Source: an uncultured Coriobacteriaceae bacterium (lineage in GTDB: Bacteria; Actinomycetota; Coriobacteriia; Coriobacteriales; Atopobiaceae). Taken from it: a stretch of 44,879 bases of DNA. Under the pieces are notes generated by a model. That model saw nothing but the letters and a program-made list of their open reading frames with translations. It was not told the DNA's origin and made no database searches. Positions 4,122-30,309 of the stretch are shown piece by piece. Location: positions 1-44,879 of the forward strand of contig CACXFC010000273.1 of the NCBI GenBank assembly GCA_902766835.1, in the 5' to 3' direction. Position 1 is the first letter of the stretch. Each line of letters opens with the position of its first letter. A program made the position numbers and the translations under genes.

Positions 4122-4140
4122 GGCCAAGAAAGGACCAACC

Positions 4141-4383: not shown

Positions 4384-4387
4384 GCGC

Positions 4388-5977
4388 ATGACCGTCGTCT
4401 CGGGGGCCTTCCTCCTGTTCCTCTGCATAACCATGGGCGTTTACTACGCCTTTCCGAGCACCTATCGGTGGCTCGTGCTGCTTGCTGCCAGCATCGTCTT
4501 CTACGTGATGGCCGGCCGGTGGGAATTCCTGCCGTGCATCTTCCTCACGTCGCTGGTCGTATGGCTGGGAGCACGCCGCTTGGCCAAGCTCGATGGGCAG
4601 CTCAAGGCGCAGCTTGCCGAGGCAGGCAAGGACAAGGCGAGGAAGAAGGCCTTGCGGGGCGAGTTCAAGTCCTTGCGGAGCCGCACGCTCGTGGGCGTGC
4701 TGGTGCTGTGCATTGGCGTGCTCTGCGTAACCAAGTTCTCGCGCGTGGTCATACCGATGCTCGATGGCATCGTTGCCCGCACCAGCACGGGCGTGCATGT
4801 CGACCCAATGGCGATCGTCATGCCGCTGGGCATCTCGTACTACACCTTCTCGACGGTGGGCTACCTGCTGGACGTGTACTGGCATCGCTACGAGGCGGAG
4901 GAGAGCTTTGCGCGCTTCTTCACCTACACTATCTACTTCCCGCACATCCTGCAGGGTCCCATCTCTCGCTACAACCGCCTGGGGCAGGAGCTGCTGCGCG
5001 AGCCGCACTTCGACGAGCGCAACATCACCCATGGCGTCGAGCGCATCATCTGGGGCTTCTTCAAGAAGCTCGTCATTGCCGACCGCCTCAACCTGCTGGT
5101 GAGCACGGTCTACAACGGCGAGGCCCATGCGGGCTCCATCTTCCTCGTCGCCATGCTCATGGACGCGCTGATGATCTACATGGACTTCTCTGGCTACATG
5201 GAAATCGTCTGCGGCGCCTCCCAGCTCTTTGGCGTCGAGCTCGAGGAGAACTTCAACCACCCGTTCTTTTCGCGCACCGTTGCCGAGTTCTGGCGCCGTT
5301 GGCATATGACCCTGGGCGGCTGGTTCAAGGACTACGTCTATTACCCCATTTCAGTCGCGTCGTGGATGAAGAAGCTCAACAAGCGCAACAACAAGCGCTT
5401 CTCCAAGCGCGTGACCCGCGTGATCAGCGTGGCCATTCCCTGCCTCATCACATGGTTCCTCACGGGCCTGTGGCATGGCACCGGCCCCAACTACGTGTGC
5501 TGGGGCATCTACTACGGCGTGCTCATCACCATCTCCAACGCCTTTACCGAGGAGTTCAAGGCCTTAGACGAGCGTCTGGGCATCAACGTGGAGTCGCGCT
5601 CGTTCCGCCTGTTCCAGATGCTGCGCACCTTCTGCATCTTCATGGGCGGCCGCGTGCTCACCAGCCCCGGCAACCTTGCCAACACCGCCATGGTCTTCGA
5701 CAACATCCTGCACAACTTCCAGCCGTGGCAGTGGTTTGACGGGAGCCTGTGGACCTACGGCCTCACCGCCAAGGACGTGTGGCTGCTCATCCTGTGCCTG
5801 CTGGTAGTGCTGGTGGTCAGCAACCTGCAGGAGCGTATGAACATCCGTGACGAGATTGACCGTCGCGGCACGGCGTTCCGCTGGGTGCTCATGATGGCGG
5901 GCATCATCTCCGTCATCGTGTTTGGCGTCTACGGCGCAGGCTATGATGCCGCCAAGTTCATCTACATGCAGTACTAG
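4388..5977 (+). CDS. MBOAT O-acyltransferase, DltB-like
   Basis: A 529-aa polytopic membrane protein of the membrane-bound O-acyltransferase family. Diagnostic blocks are PHILQGPISRYNR, FWRRWHMTLGGWFKDYVYYP (His306) and TGLWHGTGPNYVCWG with the expected catalytic His363. About ten hydrophobic segments are visible. It starts 4 bp after the carrier-protein stop. By family knowledge it takes the acyl group from the carrier thioester and passes it across the membrane, either to the DltD-like partner encoded at the head of the operon or directly to a surface glycan. A lysine-rich cytoplasmic loop (about residues 69-100) is somewhat long. DltB and AlgI-type members share these motifs; the operon context favours a DltB-like role. 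Confidence 0.88.
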   Translation: MTVVSGAFLLFLCITMGVYYAFPSTYRWLVLLAASIVFYVMAGRWEFLPCIFLTSLVVWLGARRLAKLDGQLKAQLAEAGKDKARKKALRGEFKSLRSRTLVGVLVLCIGVLCVTKFSRVVIPMLDGIVARTSTGVHVDPMAIVMPLGISYYTFSTVGYLLDVYWHRYEAEESFARFFTYTIYFPHILQGPISRYNRLGQELLREPHFDERNITHGVERIIWGFFKKLVIADRLNLLVSTVYNGEAHAGSIFLVAMLMDALMIYMDFSGYMEIVCGASQLFGVELEENFNHPFFSRTVAEFWRRWHMTLGGWFKDYVYYPISVASWMKKLNKRNNKRFSKRVTRVISVAIPCLITWFLTGLWHGTGPNYVCWGIYYGVLITISNAFTEEFKALDERLGINVESRSFRLFQMLRTFCIFMGGRVLTSPGNLANTAMVFDNILHNFQPWQWFDGSLWTYGLTAKDVWLLILCLLVVLVVSNLQERMNIRDEIDRRGTAFRWVLMMAGIISVIVFGVYGAGYDAAKFIYMQY

Positions 5978-5985
5978 GTGCTGAT

Positions 5986-6759
5986 ATGGCTACCTATGTG
6001 AAAGGCGGGGGAGAGCCGCTGCTGCTGATGCACGGCATCATCTCCGATGCGTCGTTCTTCGATGCGGCGGCCGAGCACCTTTGTACGCACTACAAGACCA
6101 TCTGGTATGACCGCCGAGGCTATGGACGCGCCGAGGCGCCGGCCGATGGCGACTATTCTGTGGCAACGCAGGCCGATGACGCCGCGCGCGTGATTGAGGA
6201 GGCAGCCGGCGAGCCTGCCTGGGTCTTTGGCAACAGCGCCGGAGGCCTGATTGCGGTTGAGCTGGCGCTGCGGCACCCCGAGCTTGTGCGTGGCCTCGTG
6301 CTGCTGGAGCCGTCGCTGGTGGCCGACGACGCCTCGAAGGCAGAGATTGCCGCTTGGAACGCCGAGCTTAACGGATACGTGGAAGGCAAGCGTCTGAAGC
6401 GGGCGCTGCCTGCCTTTGCGCGCGTGGTGGGCGACCCGAACCCGCCTCAGGAGGCCTCATCGCTGGCGCAGATGCGTCAGGTATTTGCCAACCTGAGTAA
6501 CTTCATGCACGGGGAGCTCAACTGCGTGCAACGTTATGCGCCTCCGGTCGAGATTCTGCAAGGCATTGCCGCACCCACCGTAGTACTGGTCACGCGTGGG
6601 GGCAGACAGGGCATGTTTGGGTGCACCTCGGAGGCCGGGGCTCGTGCGCTGGGCTGGCCGGTCGAGTTCATCGATGGCTACCACAACGTTGCCAAGGACG
6701 ACCCGGAGGGCTTTGCCGCCCGGCTTGTGACGGTGCTTGGCGCGCTGCCGCGCTCGTAG
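5986..6759 (+). CDS. Alpha/beta hydrolase at the end of the dlt-like operon
   Basis: A 257-aa soluble alpha/beta hydrolase with an oxyanion-region LLMHGI near the N-terminus, the DRRGYG strand turn, and the nucleophile elbow FGNSAGG with Ser84. A late GYHNVAKD supplies the candidate catalytic His. There is no signal peptide, so it should be cytoplasmic. It begins 8 bp after the MBOAT gene and is therefore probably co-transcribed. Canonical dlt operons do not carry such a gene. A thioesterase that clears mischarged carrier protein, or an enzyme preparing the acyl donor, would fit, but both are speculative. Confidence 0.75.
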   Translation: MATYVKGGGEPLLLMHGIISDASFFDAAAEHLCTHYKTIWYDRRGYGRAEAPADGDYSVATQADDAARVIEEAAGEPAWVFGNSAGGLIAVELALRHPELVRGLVLLEPSLVADDASKAEIAAWNAELNGYVEGKRLKRALPAFARVVGDPNPPQEASSLAQMRQVFANLSNFMHGELNCVQRYAPPVEILQGIAAPTVVLVTRGGRQGMFGCTSEAGARALGWPVEFIDGYHNVAKDDPEGFAARLVTVLGALPRS

Positions 6760-6777
6760 CCAAGCTCCTTCTATGCA

Positions 6778-6801
6778 TGCAAGATTGTTGAAAATCTTGC
6801 A
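6778..6801 (+). other. Perfect 9-bp inverted repeat between operons
   Basis: TGCAAGATT (6778-6786) pairs with AATCTTGCA (6793-6801) around a 6-nt loop. No T tract follows directly, so it may be an operator or a weak terminator of the dlt-like operon. A possible -10 box TACAAT lies at 6840-6845, just ahead of the next gene. Confidence 0.4.
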
Positions 6802-6871
6802 AGAGCGTTGTTTGCGGGCGTGGATTGCACCGTTTTTCCTACAATGGGAAAACCGCATATTCGACGTTTGG

Positions 6872-9274
6872 ATGTCCATGAAACGTACCCTTGCCGTTTG
6901 GCGTACCTGTGCCGCAAGCGTTGCCCTGTGTGTGGCGCTTGGCGCAAACCCCATGCGGGCTTTCGCACAGCAGGCAGAAGCAGATCCCTTGGTCTCCGAC
7001 CCCATCGCGGTGCAGGAGGAAGGCAAACAGACGATAGAGGAGCCGGCATCAGACCCGACGGACGAGACCCTCCAGGAGGGCTCGACGCCGGCTGGCACTC
7101 CCGCCGTGGCTGCTGGCACAACTACCGACAACCCGGCAACCGACAACACGCTGGCAACCGACGGAGAGCCGGCCGAGGGGTCGGATGGAACGACGACGCC
7201 TGCCGAGGGCGAGCCGAGCGAGGCAGACCCTGCGCAGGGGACCGAAGGCCAGACCGCCGAGGGGCAGGAGCCCGCGGCAACAGACCCCGCCGCAGATCCT
7301 GCCCAGGACCAGGGCTGGGTGCGCGAGGGCGGCGCCACCTACTACTACCGCGGGGGCGCGCCGCTCACCGGCGAGCAGCTGCTGCCGCGCGAGGACGGAG
7401 GCGGCGAGGCGTGGTACTGGCTCGGGCCCGATGGCGCCATGGTGCGCTCCGCGGACGTCTACGTGCCCGCCGAGGGCGGCGGCAAGTGGGTGCGCTGCGG
7501 CGCCGACGGCGCCATGCTCACCGGCGAGCACTACGCCAACGACCCGGCGGGCGGCCACGTCGGCTGGTACCACTTCGACGAGCAGACCCGTGCGATGTCG
7601 TTCGGCCTCACCGACCTGCCCTCCGGCAAGACGGTCTTCTATGACAAGGCCACCGGCGTCATGCGCTTCGGTGAGCGCTGCGTGGGCGGCTCCTGGTACC
7701 TCTTCGAGAACGGCAACGGGGCCATGGTGCGCGGCTGGCGCTGGCTGCCTGCCGGCGCCAAGTGGGTCTACTATGCGCCCGAGGATGGCCGCATGAGCAT
7801 GGGGGAGCGCTACGTCACCGACGGCGAGCAAGGCTGGTGCTACTTCGACCCCGTCACCGGCGCCACTACCTTCGGGTGGTCCTACCATGACGGTGCGTGG
7901 CACTACTACAACACCTCCAACGGCCGCGCCTTCACCGGCGAGCGCTACATCACCGACGGCGAGCAGGGCTGGTGCTTCTTCAACGAGGACCGCGGCACGC
8001 TCCACCAAGGCTTCAAGTACCTCCCGCAGCACAGCAAGTGGGTCTACTACGACGGCGCCTCCGGGCGCATGCGCTTCGGCGAGCAGCTCATCGACGGCTC
8101 CTGGTACCTCTTCGACGGCGTCACCGGAGCTATGCAGACCGGCTGGCGCCATCTGCCCTCCAACGGCGGCAAGTGGGTGTACTACGACCCGAAGGACGGC
8201 AAAATGGCCACCGGAGAGAAGTACGCGACCGAGGGGATCAAGGGCTGGTATTACTTCGACAAGGTCACTGGCGCGATGCAGACGGGTTGGCGCTATCTTG
8301 AGTCCGGCTCTGGCAAGTGGGTGCACTACGACCTGCAGACCGGCCGCATGGACACCGGCGAGCGCTACATCACCGACGGCGAGCCTGGCTGGTGCCTCTT
8401 CGACAAGACCACCGGTGCCCTGCAACAGGGGCTTCGCTACCTTCCCGACCACAACAAGGTGGTCTACTACGACCGCTACACCGGCCGCATGCGCCTTGGC
8501 TTGCAGGAGATAGGGGGAACACAGGTATTCTTCGACCCCGTGACGGGCGCCATGCAGGCGGACGGTTTTGATGTGATGGCTCGCGCGGCGCACGTGGATG
8601 GCCTGGCGATTCCCGACGAAACCCTGCTTGCCTTGCTTCAGGATGGCGCGCGTGTTCGCGTGCTGGGCGACAGCATCTGTGGCGGCTGGGGCGTCAGCAC
8701 CCCAATTGCCTATGGCGAGCGTGTCATAGCCCAGATAGACGATAAGACGTGGCACGAGCCTGCGGACCAGGCGCCCACATGGGTGAACGCCCTGCGCTCC
8801 TACCTTGCGGCCCATAACGGCACGCTCTTCAACGCGGCCGTTCCCGCCAAGGGCTACGACTGGTTCGACACCCTCGAGGAGGGTCTGCCCAACGGTGGCG
8901 AGGAGGCCTTCGACCTTACGATTGTCGCTTTGGGCACCAATGACTGGGGGAAGACTCCGGAGGAGTTGACCGCCTACGCCACGAGCGTGTATGCAAAGGC
9001 ACAGGAAACGGGCGGTAAGGTGCTTGCCGTGCTGCCTGCGCCGGTCAAGACGAATGCCGAAGGCCATGAAGGCTCCTTCAAGGTGCATCAGACCCTAGTG
9101 GACACCTGCAATGACCTTGGCATCCAGACGATTGACCTCTTCCAGCACTTCTATCCCGCAGCGCTTGCGGCCAAGTTTGCAACTCCGGAGCTCTATGCCG
9201 ACGGTGTCCACCCGACGGTGGCGGGCCAGGCGGTGCTGTGGAACATCATCTCGGAGAGTCTGGGCATCATCTAG
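6872..9274 (+). CDS. Secreted SGNH/GDSL esterase with cell-wall-binding repeats
   Basis: An 800-aa secreted protein. The start is taken at ATG 6872 (ATG 6878 is equally possible). An in-frame extension to 6737 would overlap the previous gene and push the signal peptide inward. After the signal peptide, ending near FAQQAEA, comes an acidic Glu/Pro/Ala/Thr linker to about residue 147. About 420 residues of aromatic/Gly-rich cell-wall-binding repeats follow (units like GKWVYYD..GRM and GWCYFD..TGA). The C-terminal SGNH hydrolase has GDSICGG (Ser601), GTND (Asn690 region) and DGVHPT (Asp777, His780). It is probably an extracellular O-deacylase or esterase held at the wall. Lying next to an acylation operon, it could remove groups that operon adds, although a lipase-like role is not excluded. 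Confidence 0.85.
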   Translation: MSMKRTLAVWRTCAASVALCVALGANPMRAFAQQAEADPLVSDPIAVQEEGKQTIEEPASDPTDETLQEGSTPAGTPAVAAGTTTDNPATDNTLATDGEPAEGSDGTTTPAEGEPSEADPAQGTEGQTAEGQEPAATDPAADPAQDQGWVREGGATYYYRGGAPLTGEQLLPREDGGGEAWYWLGPDGAMVRSADVYVPAEGGGKWVRCGADGAMLTGEHYANDPAGGHVGWYHFDEQTRAMSFGLTDLPSGKTVFYDKATGVMRFGERCVGGSWYLFENGNGAMVRGWRWLPAGAKWVYYAPEDGRMSMGERYVTDGEQGWCYFDPVTGATTFGWSYHDGAWHYYNTSNGRAFTGERYITDGEQGWCFFNEDRGTLHQGFKYLPQHSKWVYYDGASGRMRFGEQLIDGSWYLFDGVTGAMQTGWRHLPSNGGKWVYYDPKDGKMATGEKYATEGIKGWYYFDKVTGAMQTGWRYLESGSGKWVHYDLQTGRMDTGERYITDGEPGWCLFDKTTGALQQGLRYLPDHNKVVYYDRYTGRMRLGLQEIGGTQVFFDPVTGAMQADGFDVMARAAHVDGLAIPDETLLALLQDGARVRVLGDSICGGWGVSTPIAYGERVIAQIDDKTWHEPADQAPTWVNALRSYLAAHNGTLFNAAVPAKGYDWFDTLEEGLPNGGEEAFDLTIVALGTNDWGKTPEELTAYATSVYAKAQETGGKVLAVLPAPVKTNAEGHEGSFKVHQTLVDTCNDLGIQTIDLFQHFYPAALAAKFATPELYADGVHPTVAGQAVLWNIISESLGII

Positions 9275-15198: not shown

Positions 15199-15240
15199 TA
15201 AAAACGCTTTGTGTTTCTAGCTTGCGTGAGGTGAGGCTTT

Positions 15241-18200
15241 GTGAGACGTGTGCTGAGTAATGTATGGCTAACGCTTCTGTTGGCCTGTGCGGTTGTAGCT
15301 GCCGTTCCTATGGTGGTTCAGGCAACCGAAGCAAACGAGGTGCTGAACAGCGCTGTGGAGGAGTCTGCGGTGCCGGCGGCAGAAGTCGAGCCTGTCGACG
15401 AGGTGGCTGCACCCGAGGAGGCCGAGGCCACGGAGCTCCTTCCCGCAGAGGACGCGCCGGCGCTCGCGACGTTCGCGCCTCAGCACAACACGACGCTCGT
15501 CACGGTCACTCTAGGCGATATGGCCTCCGTCCAAGCCCAGGGAGCAACCGCCGTGCGCGTGCGCGCGGCGGTCATCTACAACGGCGAGGAGAAGCGCAGC
15601 GTCCAGCAGGAGGTTGCTCTGGCTGATATCGACCCTGCAACCGGCTCCTTCGACGTGGACTTTGGGACCTTCGGCAAGCTCTTTGCCACGGTGGACCTTC
15701 TGAAGGACGGCGAGGTACTGCAGAGCCTTCCCCAGACCCAGGTCAATGTGACGGCCGACACCTACAACATCGGCGCTCTCACGGCAACGATGCCCGTGAC
15801 ACTCTTCTCGCTTTCGCTCTGGGGCGACGGGAACATTCGCACCGATGGCCCCTCGATGATCATGCTCATGCGTGCGGCTGCCTACAACTGGGATGAGCTG
15901 CCCGGGCCCACCGACAGCCTGTATGGCGTGTATGGCATTCCGTACTTCACCGACGAGGAGCTGCGCGCCCAGCAGGACGACCAGTTCGGGCATTTCATCA
16001 ACGATCAGGCGGCCGTGATAGCCGACTACGTGCATGACCTCTATGAGATTAGCCCCGACTCGCAGTTCGTCTTCTACTTTGGCGACAACTTCTCGTTCGT
16101 GGCACAGACTTGCATCTATGCGAACGGCATTCCCGAAGACCACTATTCCATGAACGTGCTTAGCGATGGCACGGGCTCATACTCCGCATCGTTCGGGCAG
16201 CACTACGCAGGAACCGATCCTGCTGCCGACCATGAGCGCTACGTGCAGGAGTGGGTTGCCGCCAAGCAGCACGCCTACGAGACCGGCGTGGTGGACGAGG
16301 GCTTCGACGGACCTGCCTACGACAACATCCAGCGCCATGTGTGGGCCATGATCGACTCCGAGCCCAACGCGCACTGGTGGCTTACGCGCCCCTCGCTGCT
16401 CAATTCTGCAGGCGATGGCAATACTTTTGGAAGTGCCGTTGCCGCAAGCCCCAAGGTGCGCTCGTTCAATGTGGGCAATGCCCTCAAGGCGCTGCAGGCA
16501 GCAGGCGATGACGCCATTGCCGAGTTCAAGGCACTCTACGACTTCAACGATGGCTACTTCTCTGCCGCCGAGGAGCAGGGCAAGGATGCGATGGTCTTTC
16601 TGGGCACGCGCGTCGATCGCGAAGCGAACTTTTCCGAGTACGCACGCTTCGTGATGGAGTACTACGGCGACGACTACGTGTACTACTACAAGGGTCACCC
16701 CGCAACTCCCACCGATCTGCACCCCAACAAGGCCGCGCAGCTCAAGGGCCTGGGCATCACCGACGTCGATGCCACCATCGCCGCCGAGCTCATCCTGTTC
16801 TTCAATCCCGAGATCTACCTCTCGGGCTATGCCTCTAGCACCTACTCGAGCGTGCCCAAGGGCATGGGCAAGGGCATGTTCAACATGACCAAGGCCGCGG
16901 GCCTTGCCAACGAGATGTACTGCAACATGGACTACTGGTCCACGCCGGTCAGCGACGCCACGCCCGAGGCGGCCCGCGCGCTCTGCACCGAGGGGCATGA
17001 CAATTTCCTGGTGGAGTTCAGCGACGAGATCATTGCCGAGAAGGGCTATGACATCGCCATCTGGGACGCCACCGACTCGCTCATCATCTACTACCGCCTC
17101 GAGGAGGATGGCTCCTATACCGAGGTGGGCCGTAGTGGCAGCGGTATCAAGGGCGACATGTCCCTTCCCGAGGGAACCTACATCATCCAGAGCAACCTGC
17201 GCGATGACCTGGTGCTCGACAATCCGCACAGCTCGACCGTCGCAGGCTCCAACATCCACGTGTGGGCCTACAACGGTGGTGCCAACCAGCAGTGGGAGCT
17301 TACCTACGACCGCGAGGGCTATGCGACGCTCGTCAACAAGGCCAGCGGCAAGGCGCTTGACGTGACGGCCGGCTCCTCGCGCCCCGGTACCAACATCGAG
17401 CAGTGGGATACCATCGGCAGCACGGCTCAGAAGTGGAACGTCAAGCGCAACACCGACGGTACCTATACGCTCATCTCGTGCGTGGGCAACGACGTTGCGG
17501 CCGATGTGGCCGGAGCGAATGCTGCCAACGGCACGAATGTCCTTTTGTGGAACAAGACGAATGCGGCCAATCAGAAGTGGCGTTTCCTTTCCCTTAAGCC
17601 CGACGTTTCCGCCGAAGGCATGGCAGAGATTGAGGAGGGTTACTACACACTGGCGCCAAAGCTCGCTCCCTCCATGCGCCTCGACGTCGAGGGCTGGTCG
17701 ATGGTCAATGGTGCCAACCTGCTGAGCTGGCATGAGACCGGTGGCGTCAATCAGGTCTTCCACATCAAGAAGCTGGAGAGCGGCTTCTATAGCTTGACCA
17801 ACGCCTTCACCGGCAAGGCGCTGGACGTGGACCATGGTGCTCCCATTTCGGGCACCAACGTGCTTCAGTGGCAGGCCAACGGCGGCACCAACCAGGAGTG
17901 GGCCATCACGAGCCTCATCGATGGAACCTACGGCCTGCAGAATGTGGGCACGGCGCTCATGCTCGACCTCTATGGCGCCAACACCTCCGCAGGTGCCAAC
18001 GTGGCAGGATACCGAGCCAACGGCAGGAACTCTCAGCGCTGGCTGCTCCACAAGGTCGATGACCCGTGCGCCGCGACGCGTGAGAAGACGAGCGGGCAGG
18101 AGCCGGTCGTGGAGGCAGGCACCTACACCATCGCGTCGAGCGTGCGCGCCAATGCGGTGCTGGACGTGGCGGGCGCCAATATGAATGGTGGCGCCAATGT

Positions 18201-18537
18201 GCTTCTGTGGGACAACCACGGCGGAGCAAACCAGAAGTGGGAGATCTCCTACGACGAGGACGGCTTCGCAAGCATTGTGAACGTGAACAGCGGCAAGGCG
18301 CTCTCGTACGAGGGCATCGGCAATCTGGTCAACGTGGCGCAGCACACCCGCATCGGTGCCGCCAACGAGAAGTGGGCGCTTGTGGCAAACGATGACGGCA
18401 CGGTCACGCTGGTGCCGGCGCTGGCGTCTGGCTTTGCGCTCGATGCCGATCATGGCCGCGCAACGAATGGCACGAACATCCAGCTCTACCAGGCGAATGG
18501 GGGAGCGGCACAGCGCTTCCGCCTGACGGCCGCGTAA
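15241..18537 (+). CDS. Secreted GT80 sialyltransferase-like domain fused to three RICIN lectin domains
   Basis: 1098 aa from GTG 15241, with SD GGTGAGG 5 nt upstream. A signal peptide (about 1-29) and an acidic linker lead to a roughly 440-residue domain (about 185-625). Its motif order follows GT80 sialyltransferases such as Pasteurella PmST1: SDG (308-310, where GT80 has D-D/E-G), YYYKGHP with His486, a Pro-containing strand then YASSTY with Ser532/Ser533, and IAIWDATD near 605-612. From about 641 onward, nine QxW-type units (NQQWEL, AQKWNV, NQKWRF, NQEWAI and others) form three RICIN-type beta-trefoil domains. GT80 enzymes are normally cytoplasmic because they use CMP-sialic acid. A signal peptide and lectin tail suggest either an extracellular donor or loss of catalysis. 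It lies alone between a membrane glycosyltransferase and a galactofuranosyltransferase. Confidence 0.7.
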   Translation: MRRVLSNVWLTLLLACAVVAAVPMVVQATEANEVLNSAVEESAVPAAEVEPVDEVAAPEEAEATELLPAEDAPALATFAPQHNTTLVTVTLGDMASVQAQGATAVRVRAAVIYNGEEKRSVQQEVALADIDPATGSFDVDFGTFGKLFATVDLLKDGEVLQSLPQTQVNVTADTYNIGALTATMPVTLFSLSLWGDGNIRTDGPSMIMLMRAAAYNWDELPGPTDSLYGVYGIPYFTDEELRAQQDDQFGHFINDQAAVIADYVHDLYEISPDSQFVFYFGDNFSFVAQTCIYANGIPEDHYSMNVLSDGTGSYSASFGQHYAGTDPAADHERYVQEWVAAKQHAYETGVVDEGFDGPAYDNIQRHVWAMIDSEPNAHWWLTRPSLLNSAGDGNTFGSAVAASPKVRSFNVGNALKALQAAGDDAIAEFKALYDFNDGYFSAAEEQGKDAMVFLGTRVDREANFSEYARFVMEYYGDDYVYYYKGHPATPTDLHPNKAAQLKGLGITDVDATIAAELILFFNPEIYLSGYASSTYSSVPKGMGKGMFNMTKAAGLANEMYCNMDYWSTPVSDATPEAARALCTEGHDNFLVEFSDEIIAEKGYDIAIWDATDSLIIYYRLEEDGSYTEVGRSGSGIKGDMSLPEGTYIIQSNLRDDLVLDNPHSSTVAGSNIHVWAYNGGANQQWELTYDREGYATLVNKASGKALDVTAGSSRPGTNIEQWDTIGSTAQKWNVKRNTDGTYTLISCVGNDVAADVAGANAANGTNVLLWNKTNAANQKWRFLSLKPDVSAEGMAEIEEGYYTLAPKLAPSMRLDVEGWSMVNGANLLSWHETGGVNQVFHIKKLESGFYSLTNAFTGKALDVDHGAPISGTNVLQWQANGGTNQEWAITSLIDGTYGLQNVGTALMLDLYGANTSAGANVAGYRANGRNSQRWLLHKVDDPCAATREKTSGQEPVVEAGTYTIASSVRANAVLDVAGANMNGGANVLLWDNHGGANQKWEISYDEDGFASIVNVNSGKALSYEGIGNLVNVAQHTRIGAANEKWALVANDDGTVTLVPALASGFALDADHGRATNGTNIQLYQANGGAAQRFRLTAA

Positions 18538-18557
18538 GCGAAACCCTGTACGCATCT

Positions 18558-18590
18558 GGGCGCCACTCAACGTTGAGTGGCGCCCTTTTT
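18558..18590 (+). terminator. Intrinsic terminator after the GT80-RICIN gene
   Basis: A 28-bp perfect palindrome (18558-18585, centre AACGTT) is followed by TTTTT (18586-18590), 20 bp after the stop codon. Confidence 0.85.
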
Positions 18591-18683
18591 CGTACAGAGT
18601 GGCCGACCCTGCACGCAATCGGGCGAAGAGCGAGATGCGGTAGCGCCCATATCCGTACACGGTCGCATACCTGCATGGATTTC

Positions 18684-18828
18684 GCTTGCAGGACTGGCCA
18701 TGAGCGCGAGTCCCGTGGCCAGTCCCGCACGCAAGAACCGACACTGGGTGTGCATAATGAGATGGTTTCCTCTTGTGTTGTGCGGATATCCCCACATTTC
18801 TGGCCATGTGAAATGGCTATGGTATTAT
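18684..18828 (+). promoter_or_regulatory. Inverted repeat and candidate -10 box ahead of the GlfT2-like operon
   Basis: In the 335-bp gap 18538-18872, after the terminator, GGACTGGCCA (18691-18700) pairs perfectly with TGGCCAGTCC (18716-18725) around 15 nt. CTTGC/GCAAG outside this can extend the stem with a bulge. Downstream is a -10-like TATTAT (18823-18828) without a convincing -35. It may be an operator or leader structure for the operon starting at 18873. I see no small gene or T tract here. Confidence 0.4.
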
Positions 18829-18872: not shown

Positions 18873-20753
18873 ATGACGCAATTCAAGATAATGAATGTTC
18901 TGCTTTCCGACACCCCGCAGTTCCTAGGCTGCCCCCTGCTGCTGACCCGCTCCGACCGCCTCTGGCGTCGTGGCGCAGAACAGGGCACGTGGCTTCTGGA
19001 AGGCCCGGGCTCGCATGATTTCACGACCTTCTTCAACGGGGCCTCCGTCCAGAAGTGGCGCGAGTACACGGTTGCCCAGGACTTCTTCCTGCACATTGAG
19101 CTGCGCGGAGCGGCCGCTACGCTTATCGAGACTCGTACCGGTGCCTTCAACTGGTACTCCGACGAGGTGAGCGAGGCTCAGGTTGAGGTTGACGCCAGCA
19201 ATCAGTGGCAGAGCATCGATCTTCCGCTTGTCGTCAAGGATGACGATGTGGTCGTCTCGTTCAAGCTCGTCTGCGAGGGTGCCGTTGAGGTGCGCAACGC
19301 CTACTTCTACACCGAGGTCGAGCAGGACCAGATTCGCGACGTCGAGCTTGCGCTGTGCACCACCACCTTCAAGAAGGAAGAGTTCATCGAGCGCAACATC
19401 GGCCTGGTGAAGCAGGAGATTCTCGCTTCTACCGACCTCATTGCCAAGCACTTCCACATGCACGTGGTGGACAACGGCCGTACGCTCGACGCGGCAAGCC
19501 TCGAGGCGCCCGGTGTGACCATTCACCCCAACCCCAACGCTGGTGGCGCTGGCGGATTTGCGCGTGGCATGATTGAGGCCATGGAGCAGGAGCCGCGCGC
19601 GACGCACGTGCTTTTGATGGACGACGACGTGCTTGTGTCGCCTGAGAGCATCATCCGCACGTTCAACCTGCTCTCTATCGTCAACGACAAGTACGCAGAG
19701 GCCTTCGTCTCTGGCGCCATGATGAACCTCGACGAGCCCAACATCCGCTGGGAGGACATGGGCTTTGTGGGCTACGACGGTGCCTTCCATCCCATCAAGC
19801 CCATCTCGCGTATGGACGTCCTGCATGACGTCGTGGCGAACGAGACCTTCGACATTCCGTCATACCTGCCCAAGTGCGGTGACCAGGAAGAGCACTATGC
19901 CGCTTGGTGGTACTGCGTGATTCCCATGACGCAGATTGACCGCAACGGCCTGCCGCTGCCCATCTTCGTGCGCGGCGACGATGCCGAGTACAGCCGTCGT
20001 TGCAAGCCTGAGTTCATCACGATGAACGGCATCTGCATCTGGCACCTCTCGTTCCACATGCGCTACAGCGCCGCCCAGGAACGCTACCAGATGGTACGCA
20101 ACACCCTCATTGACCACTACACCACGAGCTTTGGTGGCGACGCCGACTTTATGGGCGCCTTCGAGAAGATGGTCACGCGGGAGCTGCACAAGTTCAACTA
20201 CACCAATGCCGAGCTTGCCATCAAGGGCCTTGAGGACTTCCTCAAGGGGCCGGAGTGGATCATGCAGCCGGTGGCCGAGCAGGCCTTCATGGACGCGAAC
20301 CGTACCTGCGAAAAGCTCATTCCGTTCCCCGAGCTCTTCGAGCAGGCCAAGGAGCTGGGCGTCGACCTCACCGAGGCTACCGACTGGAAGATTTATCGCG
20401 ACCGTCCCTTCGAGGGCGGCGACAAGAAGCTGCTCGAGCTGACCTACAACGGCCAGCGTTTCACCACGTCGTATATCGAGAAGGGCAAGGTTGCCGTCAT
20501 CGACAACGTGGGCTGGGCATATCCTGCGGGCAAGTTCCAGCATGCCGAGTACATCATCTCGATGGACCTGCCCAACCATCAGGGCATCATTCGCCACATC
20601 GACCGCGAGCGCTTCCGTCAGGTGAAGGAGCGCCTGCGCAAGGCGCTGCACGAGTATGACGAGCGTAAGGACGAGCTCGCCAAGAGCTACTCCGCCGCAC
20701 GCGCTGAGATGACTTCGGTGCCGTTCTGGAAGCAGTACCTGGGCATCGCGTAA
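18873..20753 (+). CDS. GlfT2-like galactofuranosyltransferase (GT2)
   Basis: A 626-aa cytoplasmic, membrane-associated glycosyltransferase whose size and motif spacing match mycobacterial GlfT2 (637 aa). There is an N-terminal beta-domain (about 1-150), then a GT-A core starting CTTTFKKEEFIERN, the NPNAGGAGGFARGM loop, and the metal-binding MDDDVLVSPE (Asp250-252). FVRGDDAEY follows (Asp369/370, candidate base), then WHLSFHMRY with His391 in the position of the GlfT2 catalytic His. GlfT2 polymerises galactofuranose from UDP-Galf onto a lipid-linked acceptor, so this gene implies a galactofuran-containing wall glycan. No UDP-galactopyranose mutase is in the window. The next gene overlaps its stop (TAATG). 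Confidence 0.88.
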   Translation: MTQFKIMNVLLSDTPQFLGCPLLLTRSDRLWRRGAEQGTWLLEGPGSHDFTTFFNGASVQKWREYTVAQDFFLHIELRGAAATLIETRTGAFNWYSDEVSEAQVEVDASNQWQSIDLPLVVKDDDVVVSFKLVCEGAVEVRNAYFYTEVEQDQIRDVELALCTTTFKKEEFIERNIGLVKQEILASTDLIAKHFHMHVVDNGRTLDAASLEAPGVTIHPNPNAGGAGGFARGMIEAMEQEPRATHVLLMDDDVLVSPESIIRTFNLLSIVNDKYAEAFVSGAMMNLDEPNIRWEDMGFVGYDGAFHPIKPISRMDVLHDVVANETFDIPSYLPKCGDQEEHYAAWWYCVIPMTQIDRNGLPLPIFVRGDDAEYSRRCKPEFITMNGICIWHLSFHMRYSAAQERYQMVRNTLIDHYTTSFGGDADFMGAFEKMVTRELHKFNYTNAELAIKGLEDFLKGPEWIMQPVAEQAFMDANRTCEKLIPFPELFEQAKELGVDLTEATDWKIYRDRPFEGGDKKLLELTYNGQRFTTSYIEKGKVAVIDNVGWAYPAGKFQHAEYIISMDLPNHQGIIRHIDRERFRQVKERLRKALHEYDERKDELAKSYSAARAEMTSVPFWKQYLGIA

Positions 20754-24825: not shown

Positions 24826-25611
24826 ATGAAAGTGGTTATCCTAGCTGGTGGCTATGGCACGCGCATCTCCGAGGAGTCGCAGTTCAAGCCCAAGCCCATG
24901 ATAGAGATAGGCGGCATGCCCATCCTCTGGCACATCATGAAGACCTACTCCCATTATGGGTTCAACGACTTCGTCATCTGTGCCGGATACAAGCAGAGCT
25001 ACATCAAGGAGTGGTTCTCAAACTACTTCCTGCACACCTCCGATGTGACCTTCGACTTCTCGACGGGCGAAAACCTCGTCACCTTCCACAACCGCCAGAC
25101 CGAGCCCTGGAAGGTCACCATCTCCGACACCGGCCTTCACACGCAGACGGGTGGCCGCATCAAGCGCATCCGTGAGTACGTGGGTGACGAGCCCTTCATG
25201 CTGACCTATGGCGACGGCGTGGCCGATGTCAACATCCCCGAGCTGCTCGCCTACCACAAGTCGCACGGGCGTATCGGCACCATGTCCATGTACAACTTCG
25301 GCCAGAGCAAGGGCGTCATCGAGGTGGGCAAGGAAGGTGTCATCGATGCCTTCCGCGAGAAGTCCGACATGGATGGCGACCTCATCAACATCGGCTTCAT
25401 GGTCTTCGAGCCTGGTATCTTCGACTATTTGCCGGGCAACTGCGACGACATGCCCTTCGAGCGCGACCCCCTCTACAACCTGGTGGCCGACCACCAGCTC
25501 ATGGGATTCGTCCATCACGGCTACTGGCAGTGCATGGACACGCTGCGCGAGAAGCAGCAGATAGAGCGACTCTGGGAATCTGGCAACGCACCGTGGAAGC
25601 TGTGGGAATAA
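24826..25611 (+). CDS. rfbF: Glucose-1-phosphate cytidylyltransferase
   Basis: A 261-aa nucleotidyltransferase making CDP-glucose from CTP and glucose-1-phosphate, the first step to CDP-linked 6-deoxysugars. The N-terminal MKVVILAGGYGTRISEES signature and FKPKPMIEIGGMPILWHIM, the TYGDGVADVNI block with its metal-binding Asp, and the tail CMDTLREKQQIERLWESG are all characteristic of RfbF/DdhA. The length (about 257 aa expected) fits. SD GAGGTG lies 7 nt from the ATG. The next gene starts directly after its stop and encodes the next pathway enzyme, which strengthens the assignment. Confidence 0.95.
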   Translation: MKVVILAGGYGTRISEESQFKPKPMIEIGGMPILWHIMKTYSHYGFNDFVICAGYKQSYIKEWFSNYFLHTSDVTFDFSTGENLVTFHNRQTEPWKVTISDTGLHTQTGGRIKRIREYVGDEPFMLTYGDGVADVNIPELLAYHKSHGRIGTMSMYNFGQSKGVIEVGKEGVIDAFREKSDMDGDLINIGFMVFEPGIFDYLPGNCDDMPFERDPLYNLVADHQLMGFVHHGYWQCMDTLREKQQIERLWESGNAPWKLWE

Positions 25612-26667
25612 ATGGTTGATCTGAACTTCTTCAAGGGAAAGCGCGTCCTTCTTACCGGGCACACCGGCTTCAAGGGATCGTGGATGAGCGTCGTTTTGGC
25701 AAACGCGGGCGCCGAGGTCATTGGCTACTCGAGCTGCAGCAAGACCGAGACGAGGCTGTTCGACCTGTGTGGCATCAAAGACCAGATCACGCACATCAAG
25801 GGTGACGTGCGCGACCTCGACCATCTGCTCGCAGTGTTTGCCGAGCACCAGCCCCAGATTGTGATCCACATGGCCGCGCAGCCCATCGTGCGCGACAGCT
25901 ACAAGGACCCGGTCGGCACCTACAGCACCAACGTCATGGGCACAGTGAACGTCTGCGAGGCCGTGCGCCAGACCCCCAGCGTGCGCTCCTTCCTCAATGT
26001 CACCACCGACAAGGTGTACCAGAACAACGAGTGGGAGTGGGGCTACCGCGAGAACGAGCCCCTCGACGGCTACGACCCGTACAGCAACTCGAAGTCGTGC
26101 TCGGAGCTGGTCACCCACAGCTACCAGCGCAGCTTCTTCGCAGAGTCCGGCGTCGCGGTCTCCACGGCGCGCGCGGGCAATGTCATTGGCGGCGGCGACT
26201 TCGCCCGTGACCGCATCATCCCCGACTGCGTGCGCGCGGCGGTTGCGGGGCGCAGCATCGTGGTGCGCAACCCCTTCTCCACGCGTCCCTACCAGCATGT
26301 GCTCGAGCCGGTGTTTGCCTACCTGATGATTGCGGCCAAGCAGTATGAAGATCCCTCGTTTGCCGGCTACTACAACGTGGGCCCCGACGACCGCGACTGC
26401 TATCAGACCGGCCAGCTGGTCGATGTCTTCGTGAAGGAGTGGGGAGAGGGCCTGAGCTGGGTCAACGAGTATGACGGCGGCCCCCATGAGGCGAACTTCC
26501 TCAAGCTCGACTGCTCGAAGCTCAAGAACACCTTTGGCTGGGCTCCCCGCTGGGATCTTGCCGAGGCCGTCGCCAAGACCGTCGAGTGGAGCAAGGCCTG
26601 GGCAGCTGGACGCGACGTGCGCGCGGTCATGAACGAGCAGATTCGCACCTATGTCGAGGGGTGCTGA
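25612..26667 (+). CDS. rfbG: CDP-glucose 4,6-dehydratase
   Basis: A 351-aa short-chain dehydrogenase/reductase-family enzyme converting CDP-glucose to CDP-4-keto-6-deoxyglucose with bound NAD. It shows the Rossmann motif TGHTGFKG (15-22), HMAAQPIVRDSYKDP, NVTTDKVYQN, and the catalytic YDPYSNSK (YxxxK), all specific to RfbG/DdhB. The ATG abuts the rfbF stop and the next gene overlaps its own stop, so the three are translated together. No rfbH-type 3-dehydrase, which would lead to 3,6-dideoxyhexoses, follows in the window. The branch therefore probably ends in a 6-deoxyhexose unless such a gene lies elsewhere. Confidence 0.95.
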   Translation: MVDLNFFKGKRVLLTGHTGFKGSWMSVVLANAGAEVIGYSSCSKTETRLFDLCGIKDQITHIKGDVRDLDHLLAVFAEHQPQIVIHMAAQPIVRDSYKDPVGTYSTNVMGTVNVCEAVRQTPSVRSFLNVTTDKVYQNNEWEWGYRENEPLDGYDPYSNSKSCSELVTHSYQRSFFAESGVAVSTARAGNVIGGGDFARDRIIPDCVRAAVAGRSIVVRNPFSTRPYQHVLEPVFAYLMIAAKQYEDPSFAGYYNVGPDDRDCYQTGQLVDVFVKEWGEGLSWVNEYDGGPHEANFLKLDCSKLKNTFGWAPRWDLAEAVAKTVEWSKAWAAGRDVRAVMNEQIRTYVEGC

Positions 26668-27602
26668 TGGCCGAAGACGTCATCATCACCGGCGCGTCTG
26701 GCTTTGTGGGCAGCCATGTGGCGGCACACCTTGCCAGCAATGGATACCATGTGCATGCGCTCGCCCTTCCCGGCGAGCGGATACCTGACGCCCTGTGTGG
26801 CGAGGGCATAACGGTCGTGCGTGCAGACCTTGCCACCTGTGACATTCACGCCCTGGTGCTGCCCAAAGACCCGGTCTGCCTCTTCCACTTCGCATGGGCG
26901 GGCGTGGCCCCCGAGAGCCGCAGCTCCATAGAAGAGCAGAAGCGCAATGTCGACCTCACCTTGCGGGCCGTTGAGCTCGCCCATCAGCAGGGCGCCAAGC
27001 GCTTCGTGTTTCCCGGCTCCACGATGGAATATAGCTACGCTGGCACCGTCATCAACCGCAGCACGCCGCCCACCCCGCAGGATGCCTATGGGGCGGCCAA
27101 GATCAGCGCGCGCTACTTCGCCGAGCTGCTCTGCCGCCAGCACGGCATCGACTTCCTCTATACCGTCATCTCGGGCATCTATGCGCCCGACCGGCTGGGC
27201 AGCAACGTCATCACCTACACCATCGAGAAGCTGCTGGCAGGGGAGCGCCCCTCGCTCACCAAGCTCGAGCAGCTGTGGGACTACGTGCACATCGACGACG
27301 TCGTCCGTGCGTTCAGGCTCGTGATGGAGCGCGGCAAGAATGGTGGCTTCTATTGCATCGGCCACGGCGACAACTGGCCCCTGCACAACTACATCTACCT
27401 GATTCGCGACCTCATCGACCCGTCGCTGCCCTTGGGCGTGGGAGACGTTCCCTACAAAGACGAGGTCATGCCCATGTCTTGCGTCGACCTTTCCGAGATC
27501 GAGCGTGACACGGGCTATGAGCCCTCCATCGACTTCAAGGATGGCGTTGCGAGCATGATCGAGGCCGTGCGCCGCAGGATGGGCCAACGCTCGGAAAACT
27601 AA
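26667..27602 (+). CDS. NAD(P)-dependent epimerase/reductase, CDP-sugar pathway
   Basis: A 311-aa extended SDR. The start is placed at ATG 26667, overlapping the rfbG stop (TGATG); the open frame to 26586 lies inside rfbG. It has the cofactor motif TGASGFVGSH (8-17), FHFAWAG, FPGSTMEYSY, and YGAAK as the YxxxK catalytic pair. Being third after rfbF and rfbG, it most likely reduces or epimerises CDP-4-keto-6-deoxyglucose to a CDP-6-deoxyhexose. Candidate end products such as CDP-6-deoxy-gulose or -altrose types cannot be told apart by eye. Confidence 0.8.
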   Translation: MAEDVIITGASGFVGSHVAAHLASNGYHVHALALPGERIPDALCGEGITVVRADLATCDIHALVLPKDPVCLFHFAWAGVAPESRSSIEEQKRNVDLTLRAVELAHQQGAKRFVFPGSTMEYSYAGTVINRSTPPTPQDAYGAAKISARYFAELLCRQHGIDFLYTVISGIYAPDRLGSNVITYTIEKLLAGERPSLTKLEQLWDYVHIDDVVRAFRLVMERGKNGGFYCIGHGDNWPLHNYIYLIRDLIDPSLPLGVGDVPYKDEVMPMSCVDLSEIERDTGYEPSIDFKDGVASMIEAVRRRMGQRSEN

Positions 27603-27792
27603 GCATGCGCACCAGGATGGCGAGTGCCTGGGCTCATATTCCCATTGGGTATGTGGGCATGCGGTGGTGATTGGCACGCGCAAGGTATCAAAACAGAGAA
27701 CACCACCCCATGAAGCGCGGGGCTGCTGCTACCCTAAACCCTATCTGCCGAAGCTGACGGAAGATCCGTTACCAAAACTGGGAGGAACCCCT

Positions 27793-30309
27793 ATGCGCAG
27801 GCGCAAGCTCTCTTCTTTCATCGCTGTGCTGATGCTGACCTTGGCGATGCTGGTGCCCTCGATGGCCCTGGCGGACGAGGCCGACATCGTTGCCCAAGAC
27901 GTGACTGCAGCCACCGAGCCGGTGGCCGTCGTCACCGAGCAGGTAGCCGACGAGCCTGACGTGGGCGGAGAGGCCGTACAAGAGGTCGCTGCTCCCAGCG
28001 AGGAAGAGCCTGCCACGCCTGAGGGCGAGCTTCCCGAGGCTGTGGTGGAAGACGATGCTGCCGCGCCCGAGAATGACGGCACCGGTGACGCCGCCGCCGA
28101 CGACGCCATGGCCCAGGACGTGGTCGAGACCACGACGGATGAGGTGTTGGACGCTCCACAGGGGCAGGAGTCTGTTGCAAGCGAGCTTGAGCCTACCGCA
28201 GGCGAGCAGGCCATGCAGGTGACCTCCGAAGGCCAGGCGGCACTCGATGCCTTTGCCGCGGCGCACGCCCACGACATCGCCGAGGGCACCTATGCCATCA
28301 AGAGCGGCTTGGGCAACAACCTGGTGATGGACGTGGACCATGCGGGCAAGACCGATGGCACGACCATCCTGATCTGGGAGTTCTTGAACGCGACCAACCA
28401 GCAGTGGGAGCTGAAGGCCACCACGGGCGGCTATTTCACCATTGCGAGCAAGTCGAGCGGCAAGTACCTCGACATCGCGGGCGGTGACACAAAGGCTGGC
28501 CCCTTTGCTGGCATCGTGCAGTGGAGCGAGCGCAAGGACGGCTCGCGCGGGCAGCTGTGGGTCATCTCGCAGGAGTCGGACGGCTACAAGTTCACCTCTG
28601 CGGTGCTCGGCGCCAAGGGCGAGCGGTACGTGCTCGACGTCTACGGCGGTAATGCCACCATGGGTGCCAAGCTCACCCTCTGGACCGACAAGAAGACCCA
28701 GGCGGCCAACCAGCGCTGGACCTTTGCCGTGACCGACAAGATCCTTGACGCCCTGGCAAAGGAGCACAAGGGCGACCTTGCCGATGGCACCTACTTCATC
28801 TCGAGCGAGCTGGGCTCCAAGCTCGTGCTCGACATCGAGTACGCATCGCGCGACAATGCAGCTGCCGCCGTCGTGTGGCCCAAGAACCCCTCGGCCAACG
28901 AGGGCTGGACCGTCTCACACAACGCGGCTGGATACCTCACCATCACCAACGCTCTTTCGGGTAAGGTGCTTGATGTGTACGGCGGCACCGCCTCCATCGG
29001 TGCCTCGGTCATCCAGTGGATGGACAAGCATGACGGCGCCCGCAACCAGCAGTGGATTGCCGCCAAGCAGAGCGATGGCACCTACCACCTCGTCTCGGCG
29101 CTTCCCTTCTCCAACTATCTGGTGCTTGACGTGTACGGCGCCAAGGCTGTGCCGCAGGCAAAGACCATCCTGTGGGTCGACAAGGGTGACGGTGCAGCCA
29201 ACCAGCGCTGGTCGTTCGACGAGGCACCCGAGCAGTACGCCTACGCGCACTCCGTAGCCGATGGTACCTACACCGTGCGTACCGCACTCGACGCCACCAA
29301 GACCCTCGACGTCTATCAGGCGCTCGATGCGGCCGGCACCCAGGTCATCCTGTGGGTGGCCCATGGCGGCAACTCGGCCAACCAGCGCTGGACCATCACG
29401 CACGACAACCAGGGCTATGCGCACCTGACCAACGTGAACAGCAAGAAGGAGCTGGGCTTCTCGGAAGCGGGGAAGGCCGTGCAGGTTGCCGGTTCCTTCA
29501 ATTGGGTGATTGAGCCGCAGAGCGATGGCACCTACCGCTTCAGGGCGGCCACGGGCACCTCTGCCGGCAAGTACCTGGACGTCGACCACGCCAAGACCGA
29601 CAACGGCACCACGGTGCTCGCATGGGCCTCGAATGGCGGCAGGAACCAGACGTGGGTTATCCGCGGAGGCGGCGCCAACGTCATCGCCCTCGACCCCGGC
29701 CATGGCGGCAACGACTCGGGCGCCACGGCCAATGGCCTGCGCGAGTGCGACCTCACTTGGAGCATCACCCAGGCCTGCGCCGAGCGTCTGCGCTCCTATG
29801 GCTATGAGGTGTACATCACGGTTAGCGAGGCCGAGTTCAAGAACGGGGGCATCCCCGCGGTGACTTTGGCCTCACGCGTGCAGCGCGCGGCCGACCATGG
29901 CGCCGCGGCCATCTTCTCGATTCACATCAACGCGGGTGGCGGCCATGGTGCCGTGACGCTCGTGCCCAACAACAGCTCCTACCATTACGAGCTGTACCAG
30001 CAGGGCCAGCAGTTTGCCCAGACGCTTTTGCCCAAGATCAACGCCATCGGCATTGGAACCTGGGGTGATGGCGCGTGGGAGCGCAACTACTCCACTGGCG
30101 ATGGTGCCGAGACCAACCGCTACTACGATGGCGGCGGCTTCCAGGACTACTATGGCATCGTGCGCTACGCACGCCTGAAGGGCATGCTGGGCGTCATCAT
30201 CGAGCATGGCTTCATCGACTCGAGTGACGCGAACCTGCTGCGTCAGGCGGTTGTGCAGGCAAGGCTCGGACAGGCTGACGCCGAGGCCATCAACGCAATC
30301 TACGGCTAG
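27793..30309 (+). CDS. Secreted N-acetylmuramoyl-L-alanine amidase with three RICIN domains
   Basis: 838 aa from ATG 27793, which has SD GGGAGGAA; 43 upstream in-frame codons would bury the signal peptide. The layout is signal peptide (about 1-25), acidic linker to about 150, then RICIN repeats with nine QxW-like units (NQQWEL, GQLWVI, NQRWTF, NQQWIA, NQRWSF, NQRWTI, NQTWVI and two degenerate). A C-terminal Amidase_3 domain spans about 629-838. Zinc and catalytic residues are in place: DPGHGG His637, RECD Glu651, SIHINAG His711 and IIEHGF Glu804. It should cleave the MurNAc-L-Ala bond of peptidoglycan, with RICIN domains binding a wall or capsule glycan. The 190-bp region ahead of it has no clear promoter. 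It is paralogous to the next gene outside the catalytic domain. Confidence 0.9.
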   Translation: MRRRKLSSFIAVLMLTLAMLVPSMALADEADIVAQDVTAATEPVAVVTEQVADEPDVGGEAVQEVAAPSEEEPATPEGELPEAVVEDDAAAPENDGTGDAAADDAMAQDVVETTTDEVLDAPQGQESVASELEPTAGEQAMQVTSEGQAALDAFAAAHAHDIAEGTYAIKSGLGNNLVMDVDHAGKTDGTTILIWEFLNATNQQWELKATTGGYFTIASKSSGKYLDIAGGDTKAGPFAGIVQWSERKDGSRGQLWVISQESDGYKFTSAVLGAKGERYVLDVYGGNATMGAKLTLWTDKKTQAANQRWTFAVTDKILDALAKEHKGDLADGTYFISSELGSKLVLDIEYASRDNAAAAVVWPKNPSANEGWTVSHNAAGYLTITNALSGKVLDVYGGTASIGASVIQWMDKHDGARNQQWIAAKQSDGTYHLVSALPFSNYLVLDVYGAKAVPQAKTILWVDKGDGAANQRWSFDEAPEQYAYAHSVADGTYTVRTALDATKTLDVYQALDAAGTQVILWVAHGGNSANQRWTITHDNQGYAHLTNVNSKKELGFSEAGKAVQVAGSFNWVIEPQSDGTYRFRAATGTSAGKYLDVDHAKTDNGTTVLAWASNGGRNQTWVIRGGGANVIALDPGHGGNDSGATANGLRECDLTWSITQACAERLRSYGYEVYITVSEAEFKNGGIPAVTLASRVQRAADHGAAAIFSIHINAGGGHGAVTLVPNNSSYHYELYQQGQQFAQTLLPKINAIGIGTWGDGAWERNYSTGDGAETNRYYDGGGFQDYYGIVRYARLKGMLGVIIEHGFIDSSDANLLRQAVVQARLGQADAEAINAIYG

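What the first reader, a model, noticed from the sequence alone, without database searches (positions are those of the whole stretch)
15241..18537. A secreted GT80 sialyltransferase-like domain fused to RICIN lectins
The region of about residues 185-625 follows the GT80 motif series (x-D-G, KGHP, paired serines, late IxWD) in order and at similar spacing to PmST1-type enzymes. Yet it has a signal peptide and three RICIN domains. CMP-sugar donors are not expected outside the cell. The first acidic residue of the D-D/E-G motif appears as Ser308 (SDG). It could be an extracellular transglycosylase or hydrolase using another donor, or a repurposed glycan-binding domain. I know of no described secreted GT80-lectin fusion.
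Basis: partly seen in the sequence, partly recalled or inferred. Interest (0 to 1): 0.8.

Follow-up and report, generated by a model that had tools for sequence, protein, structure and literature searches.

The report
Secreted lectin-tethered GT80-like sugar transferase
A gut-type bacterium exports a wall-bound protein whose core closely resembles enzymes that add sialic acid and keeps all their key active-site residues, yet no sialic-acid pathway was found in its genome, so it raises the testable question of how such an enzyme gets its donor sugar outside the cell.

Summary
ORF 15241-18537 encodes 1098 aa: Sec signal peptide, Ig/FN3-like domain, GT-B domain, three ricin-type trefoils. A confident AlphaFold model (pLDDT 92.9) matches only GT80 sialyltransferases well: the 12 best Foldseek hits, and all 21 VIA rows at Z 16.4-20.4 against 10.3 for the next. 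The 'missing' acid is not the catalytic base. In PmST1 and MhPST the base is the second acidic residue of D/E-D/E-G, here Asp309, invariant in 47 relatives. The KGHP His486, ribose Glu516 and Ser532/Ser533 are also kept. The protein belongs to an unnamed family (66 loci; Actinomycetota, Bacillota, a few others). Nearly every member with a readable N-terminus is exported (signal peptide, lipoprotein or membrane anchor), with RICIN, choline-binding, ChW, SLH, LRR or Ig modules. Its own genome has no recognisable nonulosonate synthase or CMP-sugar synthetase. Most likely it is an active, surface-tethered CMP-sugar-binding glycosyltransferase using donor from outside; CMP-assisted trans-sialidation and another donor remain open. 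It is not filed as a GT80 member: the strict acidic pair is absent and the window protein scores below the Pfam cut-off. New variant of a known kind. Activity, donor and acceptor are untested.

The parts
15228..15236 (+). ribosome-binding-like sequence GAGGTGAGG
   Evidence: sequence read
15241..18537 (+). whole gene, 1098 aa secreted GT80-like/RICIN protein (GTG start)
15241..15324 (+). signal peptide, about residues 1-28, cleavage near VQA|TEA
   Evidence: sequence and hydropathy; relatives also carry export signals
15325..15477 (+). acidic/proline-rich linker, residues 29-79
   Evidence: sequence
15478..15774 (+). Ig/FN3-like beta-sandwich domain, about residues 80-178
   Evidence: AF2 model of this domain pLDDT 93.2; FN3 domains Z up to 8.7
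15775..17115 (+). GT-B domain related to GT80 sialyltransferases, about residues 179-625
   Evidence: AF2 model pLDDT 92.9; Foldseek and VIA
16162..16170 (+). S308-D309-G310, place of the D/E-D/E-G motif; D309 takes the place of the catalytic base (PmST1 D141, MhPST E153)
   Evidence: D309 47/47, S308 41 Ser/6 Thr; loop between a strand and a helix in the model as described for MhPST
16690..16701 (+). KGHP motif, K484-P487; H486 corresponds to PmST1 H311
16783..16788 (+). A515-E516; E516 corresponds to the ribose-binding PmST1 E338 / MhPST E323
16834..16842 (+). S532-S533-T534; corresponds to the phosphate-binding S355/S356 of PmST1
17158..17610 (+). ricin-type beta-trefoil 1, about residues 640-790
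17638..18075 (+). ricin-type beta-trefoil 2, about residues 800-945
18109..18534 (+). ricin-type beta-trefoil 3, about residues 957-1098
18558..18585 (+). intrinsic terminator-like hairpin just after the gene (12 pairs, T-run)
   Evidence: the scan finds about as many as in shuffles, but this one is long and well placed

Best explanation
The protein is an exported, surface-tethered glycosyltransferase of the bacterial sialyltransferase superfamily (GT80/GT38/GT52 type, GT-B fold). Shown: it has an export signal, an Ig/FN3-like domain, a GT80-type fold with the catalytic and CMP-site residues kept, and three ricin-type lectins. Inferred: the lectins hold it on cell-surface or wall glycan; the cleft between the two Rossmann domains binds a cytidine nucleotide (Lys484, Ala515, Glu516, His486, Ser532/533); Asp309 deprotonates an acceptor hydroxyl; the sugar passes in one inverting step to a surface or mucosal glycan. 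The donor would be a CMP-activated ulosonic acid, probably sialic acid, scavenged from outside, because no recognisable pathway for making one was found in the genome.
For: Fold: 12 best Foldseek hits are GT80 (E 1.6e-13 to 2e-10; next 2e-5) and 21 VIA rows are GT80 at Z 16.4-20.4, next 10.3, on a model of pLDDT 92.9. Residues: D309, K484, H486, A515 and E516 invariant in 47 relatives of median 35% core identity; collinear alignment KGHP...E...SS with PmST1-type chains. The base is the second acid of the motif (PMC5517516), and Asp141, His311, Glu338, Ser355 and Ser356 are important in PmST1 (PMC4202792). Relatives pass curated cut-offs: L089 for PM0188 (26.3 vs 25) and L060 for polysialyltransferase (28.5 vs 23.3). 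Export: nearly every member with a readable N-terminus has a signal peptide, lipobox or TM anchor, with wall- or surface-type modules. No pathway: NeuB-like hits at E about 1e-10 fit DAHP synthase (the one scanned, L092, is) and the own-genome CTP_transf_3 hit is GlmU. Use of scavenged CMP-Neu5Ac is known in gonococcus (PMC11078009).
Against: No activity, donor or acceptor was tested. CMP-sugars are not known to be plentiful outside cells. [quoted passage not shown] Relatives occur in what appear to be termite-gut and reactor MAGs (L032, L042 titles), where host sialic acid should be scarce. Sialidase homologues (BNR_2) occur in only 2 of 22 genomes with the protein, so a sialic-acid niche is not obvious. 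The first acidic residue, whose mutation slows MhPST 300-fold, is Ser or Thr. The D309-D141 correspondence rests on motif order, conservation and position after a strand, not on a printed superposition. The own genome is 90% complete, so a missing pathway is not proven absent.
Confidence: 0.5

Rival explanations
1. CMP-assisted trans-sialidase or sialidase. The enzyme runs in reverse: with extracellular CMP it takes sialic acid off host glycans and passes it to another glycan or to water, so no pre-made CMP-sialic acid is needed.
For: Three Photobacterium GT80 enzymes have sialidase activity that rises with CMP (PMC4521712); GT80 enzymes are described as having sialidase, trans-sialidase and CMP-sialic acid hydrolase activities (PMC4202792). 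The site residues needed are kept. It resolves the donor paradox.
Against: It needs free CMP outside the cell. Ordinary sialidases do the same job more simply. The broad host range includes hosts and habitats expected to be poor in sialic acid.
Confidence: 0.2
2. An active extracellular transferase with a different donor: another cytidine-linked sugar or polyol, or a phosphate-linked donor of the cell-wall polysaccharide pathway, acting on the bacterium's own wall polymer.
For: The window is a wall-polysaccharide locus: CDP-glucose pathway genes 24826-26664, GlfT2-like GT, DltB-like MBOAT and TagH/Wzt-like ATPase. Glycan genes recur near relatives (GT2, sugar dehydratases). No nonulosonate pathway was found. 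The first motif residue and the acceptor side differ from GT80.
Against: CDP-sugars are made and used in the cytoplasm. The CDP-glucose genes did not cluster with any flanking gene of the relatives. Donor-side residues match CMP enzymes closely.
Confidence: 0.22
3. A catalytically dead nucleotide- or glycan-binding module that only serves adhesion.
For: CMP-sugars are unexpected outside the cell, and three lectin domains suit a binding role.
Against: Asp309, His486 and Glu516 are invariant across 47 sequences down to 25% identity, which binding-only use would not require.
Confidence: 0.06

Closest known systems
GT80 sialyltransferases (PmST1/PM0188; Photobacterium alpha-2,3- and alpha-2,6-sialyltransferases, PDB 2z4t, 4r83, 2zwi, 2ihk)
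   Same: Whole GT-B fold, KGHP, ribose Glu, Ser pair and the catalytic Asp; Photobacterium enzymes also have an N-terminal Ig-like domain (4r83 aligns from model residue 4; the Ig-like name is from my knowledge). From memory, not verified here, Photobacterium enzymes carry lipoprotein-type leaders.
   Different: S/T-D-G instead of an acidic pair; 10-16% identity; RICIN, choline-binding, ChW, SLH or LRR modules; mainly Gram-positive hosts; no recognisable CMP-sialate pathway in the own genome.
GT38 bacterial polysialyltransferases (MhPST, PDB 5wc6; PF07388)
   Same: GT-B fold, HP motif, A-E and S-T phosphate/ribose residues; one relative (L060) passes the Pfam cut-off.
   Different: Weaker fold match (E 7.6e-5); first motif acid missing; exported.
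Gonococcal lipooligosaccharide sialyltransferase Lst (GT52)
   Same: A transferase in an organism that cannot make sialic acid and uses scavenged CMP-Neu5Ac (PMC11078009).
   Different: Not compared by sequence or fold here; [quoted passage not shown] no lectin domains.
Ricin-type beta-trefoil wall enzymes of the same locus (amidase, glucosaminidase, L,D-transpeptidase at 27664-37225)
   Same: Same RICIN modules on wall enzymes in the same window.
   Different: Hydrolase or transpeptidase catalytic domains rather than a glycosyltransferase.

Membership tests
GT80 (Pfam PF11477, PM0188) | GT-B double-Rossmann fold closest to GT80 structures | tested here: met
   GT80 takes the first 21 VIA rows, Z 16.4-20.4, next 10.3
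GT80 (Pfam PF11477, PM0188) | D/E-D/E-G motif with both acids | tested here: not met
   S308 in 41, T in 6 of 47; only D309-G310 kept
GT80 (Pfam PF11477, PM0188) | catalytic base at the second acid (PmST1 D141) | tested here: met
   D309 47/47; loop between strand 223-228 and helix 232-242 of the model; mapping by motif and position, not by printed superposition
GT80 (Pfam PF11477, PM0188) | KGHP motif (PmST1 H311) | tested here: met
   K484-P487; also invariant in A1, which was not recruited by motif
GT80 (Pfam PF11477, PM0188) | ribose-binding Glu (E338) and phosphate-binding Ser pair (S355/S356) | tested here: met
   E516 47/47; S532 44/47 Ser/Thr, S533 47/47 Ser/Thr
GT80 (Pfam PF11477, PM0188) | score over Pfam gathering cut-off (25 bits) | tested here: not met
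   window protein 14.9-16.5 bits; relative L089 26.3 passes
GT80 (Pfam PF11477, PM0188) | CMP-Neu5Ac sialyltransferase activity | not testable with these tools
   needs purified protein
GT38 polysialyltransferase (PF07388) | score over Pfam cut-off | tested here: not met
   window protein not listed for PF07388; 7 of 16 members hit weakly; L060 28.5 vs 23.3 passes
Ricin-type beta-trefoil lectin (PF14200/PF00652) | score over Pfam cut-off, QxW triads | tested here: met
   238.9 and 116.3 bits; nine QxW-type motifs
exported protein | N-terminal Sec signal | tested here: met
   sequence and hydropathy only; consistent across relatives; no signal-peptide predictor available

The most novel reading that the evidence does not exclude
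A widespread family of surface-anchored bacterial enzymes catalyses nucleotide-sugar-dependent (CMP-nonulosonate) glycosylation outside the cell, with donor taken from the host or neighbours. This would be a way for Gram-positive gut bacteria without sialic-acid synthesis to decorate their own wall, or mucus, with sialic acid.
Probability: 0.3. Interest if true: 0.85.

Novelty: new variant of a known kind. Interest (0 to 1): 0.64.

Why it matters
Nucleotide-sugar glycosyltransferases are normally cytoplasmic, or in eukaryotes lumenal, because that is where their donors are. A conserved, exported family with intact CMP-enzyme residues in bacteria such as Collinsella, Actinomyces and Trueperella would mean either that extracellular CMP-sugars or CMP are a usable resource on mucosal surfaces, or that this fold has a second, donor-independent activity. 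Both can be tested with one purified domain. The answer bears on how commensals display sialic acid, and on how GT80 enzymes came to have sialidase side activities.

Tried and rejected
Ser308 as loss of catalysis: rejected, the base is the second acid. True NeuB or CMP-sugar synthetase in the own genome: NeuB-like hits fit DAHP synthase (sampled) and the own CTP_transf_3 hit is GlmU. Profile searches of A1/A2 and of L042/L083 against PDB sequences gave nothing useful, so the sequence link to GT80 rests on single-sequence phmmer (E about 0.02) and Pfam. Viral structures gave no sialyltransferase. A profile-profile test against bona fide GT80 sequences was not done: the E. coli locus could not serve as a centre for a gammaproteobacterial search. 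GT80 model over 396 genomes of the phylum: nothing over the cut-off. Conserved neighbour genes: only general surface-glycan genes recur, and Actinomyces/Trueperella loci have housekeeping neighbours. Signal peptides of Photobacterium GT80 enzymes could not be confirmed from the open library, so that point is from memory. Caution on conservation: 66 loci were recruited with patterns containing YxYYYKGH or AELILF, so K484/H486 and in part A515/E516 are selected for; D309 is not, 15 of the 47 rows lack the second pattern yet keep A-E, and A1 was recruited without patterns.

Full report
The observation. ORF 15241-18537 on the + strand encodes 1098 residues from a GTG codon behind a GAGGTGAGG sequence. 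The order is: signal peptide (about 1-28), acidic linker (29-79), Ig/FN3-like domain (about 80-178), GT-B domain (about 179-625), three ricin-type trefoils (about 640-790, 800-945, 957-1098). Ricin domains score far over the Pfam cut-off, and nine QxW-type motifs fall three to a trefoil. A 12-pair hairpin with a T-run lies at 18558-18585. The 876-aa ORF on the other strand (16177-18807) has no support and is taken as a shadow of the coding frame.

Is it GT80? By sequence alone the link is weak but collinear. PM0188 scores 14.9-16.5 bits against a cut-off of 25. The region around residues 474-541 matches PmST1-type chains at E about 0.02-0.05, with YYYKGHP over YFKGHP, the Glu of AELI over that of FEIL, and GYASST over GVASSL. 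Some relatives pass curated cut-offs: L089 for PM0188 and L060 for polysialyltransferase. The fold settles it. A model from 47 aligned relatives (pLDDT 92.9, pTM 0.89) matches GT80 structures first in Foldseek (E 1.6e-13 for 4r83, 5.5e-13 for 2z4t; the first non-GT80 hit is 2e-5). In VIA-align the first 21 rows are GT80 at Z 16.4-20.4, then a gap to 10.3. The N-terminal domain alone is an Ig/FN3-like sandwich.

Which residue is changed? Here S308-D309-G310 lies between strand 223-228 and helix 232-242 of the model (numbering from residue 80), and D309 is invariant in 47 sequences. So the base is kept; the first acid, which matters for rate (E152A is about 300-fold worse in MhPST), is Ser or Thr throughout. 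His486, Glu516 and Ser532/533 match the PmST1 residues His311, Glu338, Ser355 and Ser356 listed as important for catalysis (PMC4202792). Only 20 of 421 core columns are invariant at a median pairwise identity of 35%, and they include D309, K484, H486 and E516. Because the larger set was recruited by patterns around KGHP and AELILF, K484 and H486 are partly selected; the set A1, recruited without patterns, shows the same invariants, and 15 of 47 rows lack the second pattern yet keep Ala-Glu.

The family. In the order of the window (Coriobacteriales by its relatives) 21 of 299 genomes encode the core; in an even draw over the phylum 3 of 396 do. A scan of species genomes gave 66 loci in Coriobacteriia, Actinomyces, Trueperella, Propionibacteriaceae, a Bifidobacteriaceae MAG, Lachnospiraceae and other Clostridia, Erysipelotrichaceae, Mollicutes-type MAGs, a spirochaete and a Prevotella MAG. 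Of the members whose N-terminus is readable, nearly all begin with a Sec signal, a lipobox or a TM anchor; L070 has no clear one, and L052 is masked. The accessory modules differ while the core stays: RICIN, SLH, choline-binding repeats, clostridial hydrophobic W, leucine-rich repeats, Big_2, or none. This pattern is what one expects of an enzyme held at the cell surface by whatever anchor the lineage uses.

Where would the donor come from? Of 22 genomes with the gene, only Senegalimassilia (G221) has strong NeuB-family and CMP-synthetase matches, which score as pseudaminic acid synthase and cytidylyltransferase. The other NeuB-like matches are weak (E about 1e-4 to 1e-12). One of them, L092, scores as DAHP synthase, and others whose first residues were read look alike. 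The own-genome CTP_transf_3 match is GlmU. The own genome is 90% complete, so absence is likely, not proven. BNR sialidases are in 2 of 22. The window itself is a wall-polysaccharide locus with CDP-glucose genes, a DltB-like MBOAT, a TagH/Wzt-like ATPase and RICIN-bearing wall enzymes. Near relatives, GT2 enzymes and sugar dehydratases recur, but no single neighbour is constant.

Mechanism. Shown: export signal, fold, residues, domains. Inferred: the lectins hold the enzyme on surface glycan; cytidine nucleotide binds between the Rossmann domains; Asp309 and His486 act as base and leaving-group stabiliser in an inverting transfer; the donor comes from outside. I give about 0.95 to the GT80-type fold, 0.8 to an active site that works, and 0.5 to the full statement. 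The trans-sialidase rival (0.2) is attractive because Photobacterium GT80 enzymes have CMP-stimulated sialidase activity (PMC4521712). Another donor (0.22) is attractive because of the wall-polysaccharide locus and of relatives in habitats that should be poor in sialic acid. [quoted passage not shown]

Filing. The protein is a member of a GT80-like family, not filed as GT80: the strict acidic pair is absent and the window protein is below the Pfam cut-off. It very probably works like one. I found no paper describing a secreted GT80-lectin protein in the open library, which does not hold most subscription journals. From memory, Photobacterium GT80 enzymes carry lipoprotein-type leaders; I could not confirm this here.

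Noticed in passing
window 2709-9274: An AMP-binding enzyme, a DltB-like MBOAT (177 bits, below the equivalog cut-off), an alpha/beta hydrolase and a choline-binding GDSL esterase in a row: looks like a wall-polymer acylation set.
   Followed up: partly
window 24826-27602: Glucose-1-phosphate cytidylyltransferase and CDP-glucose 4,6-dehydratase (both over the equivalog cut-off) plus an epimerase: a CDP-deoxysugar pathway.
   Followed up: partly
window 27664-39793: Run of RICIN or choline-binding wall proteins: amidase_3, glucosaminidase, a choline-binding protein, L,D-transpeptidase, and a RICIN protein with no recognised catalytic domain (37244-39793).
   Followed up: no
window 40690-41724: TagH/Wzt-like export ATPase with about 100 extra N-terminal residues; the ORF just before it as listed (39763-40677) looks spurious, so its permease was not identified.
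   Followed up: partly
window 18873-20753: GT2 protein with GlfT2-like domains just below the Pfam cut-off, suggesting galactofuranose in the wall polymer.
   Followed up: no
window 286-2709: 807-aa protein with ILEI domain matches (86 bits) upstream of the acylation genes.
   Followed up: no
L020/L023/L051 and L022/L069: Copies of the family interrupted by stop codons in a Collinsella MAG and an Eggerthellales MAG.
   Followed up: no
L090, L098 (Senegalimassilia, G221): The only genome of the 22 with a nonulosonate pathway; it scores as pseudaminic acid synthase and cytidylyltransferase, not sialic acid.
   Followed up: yes
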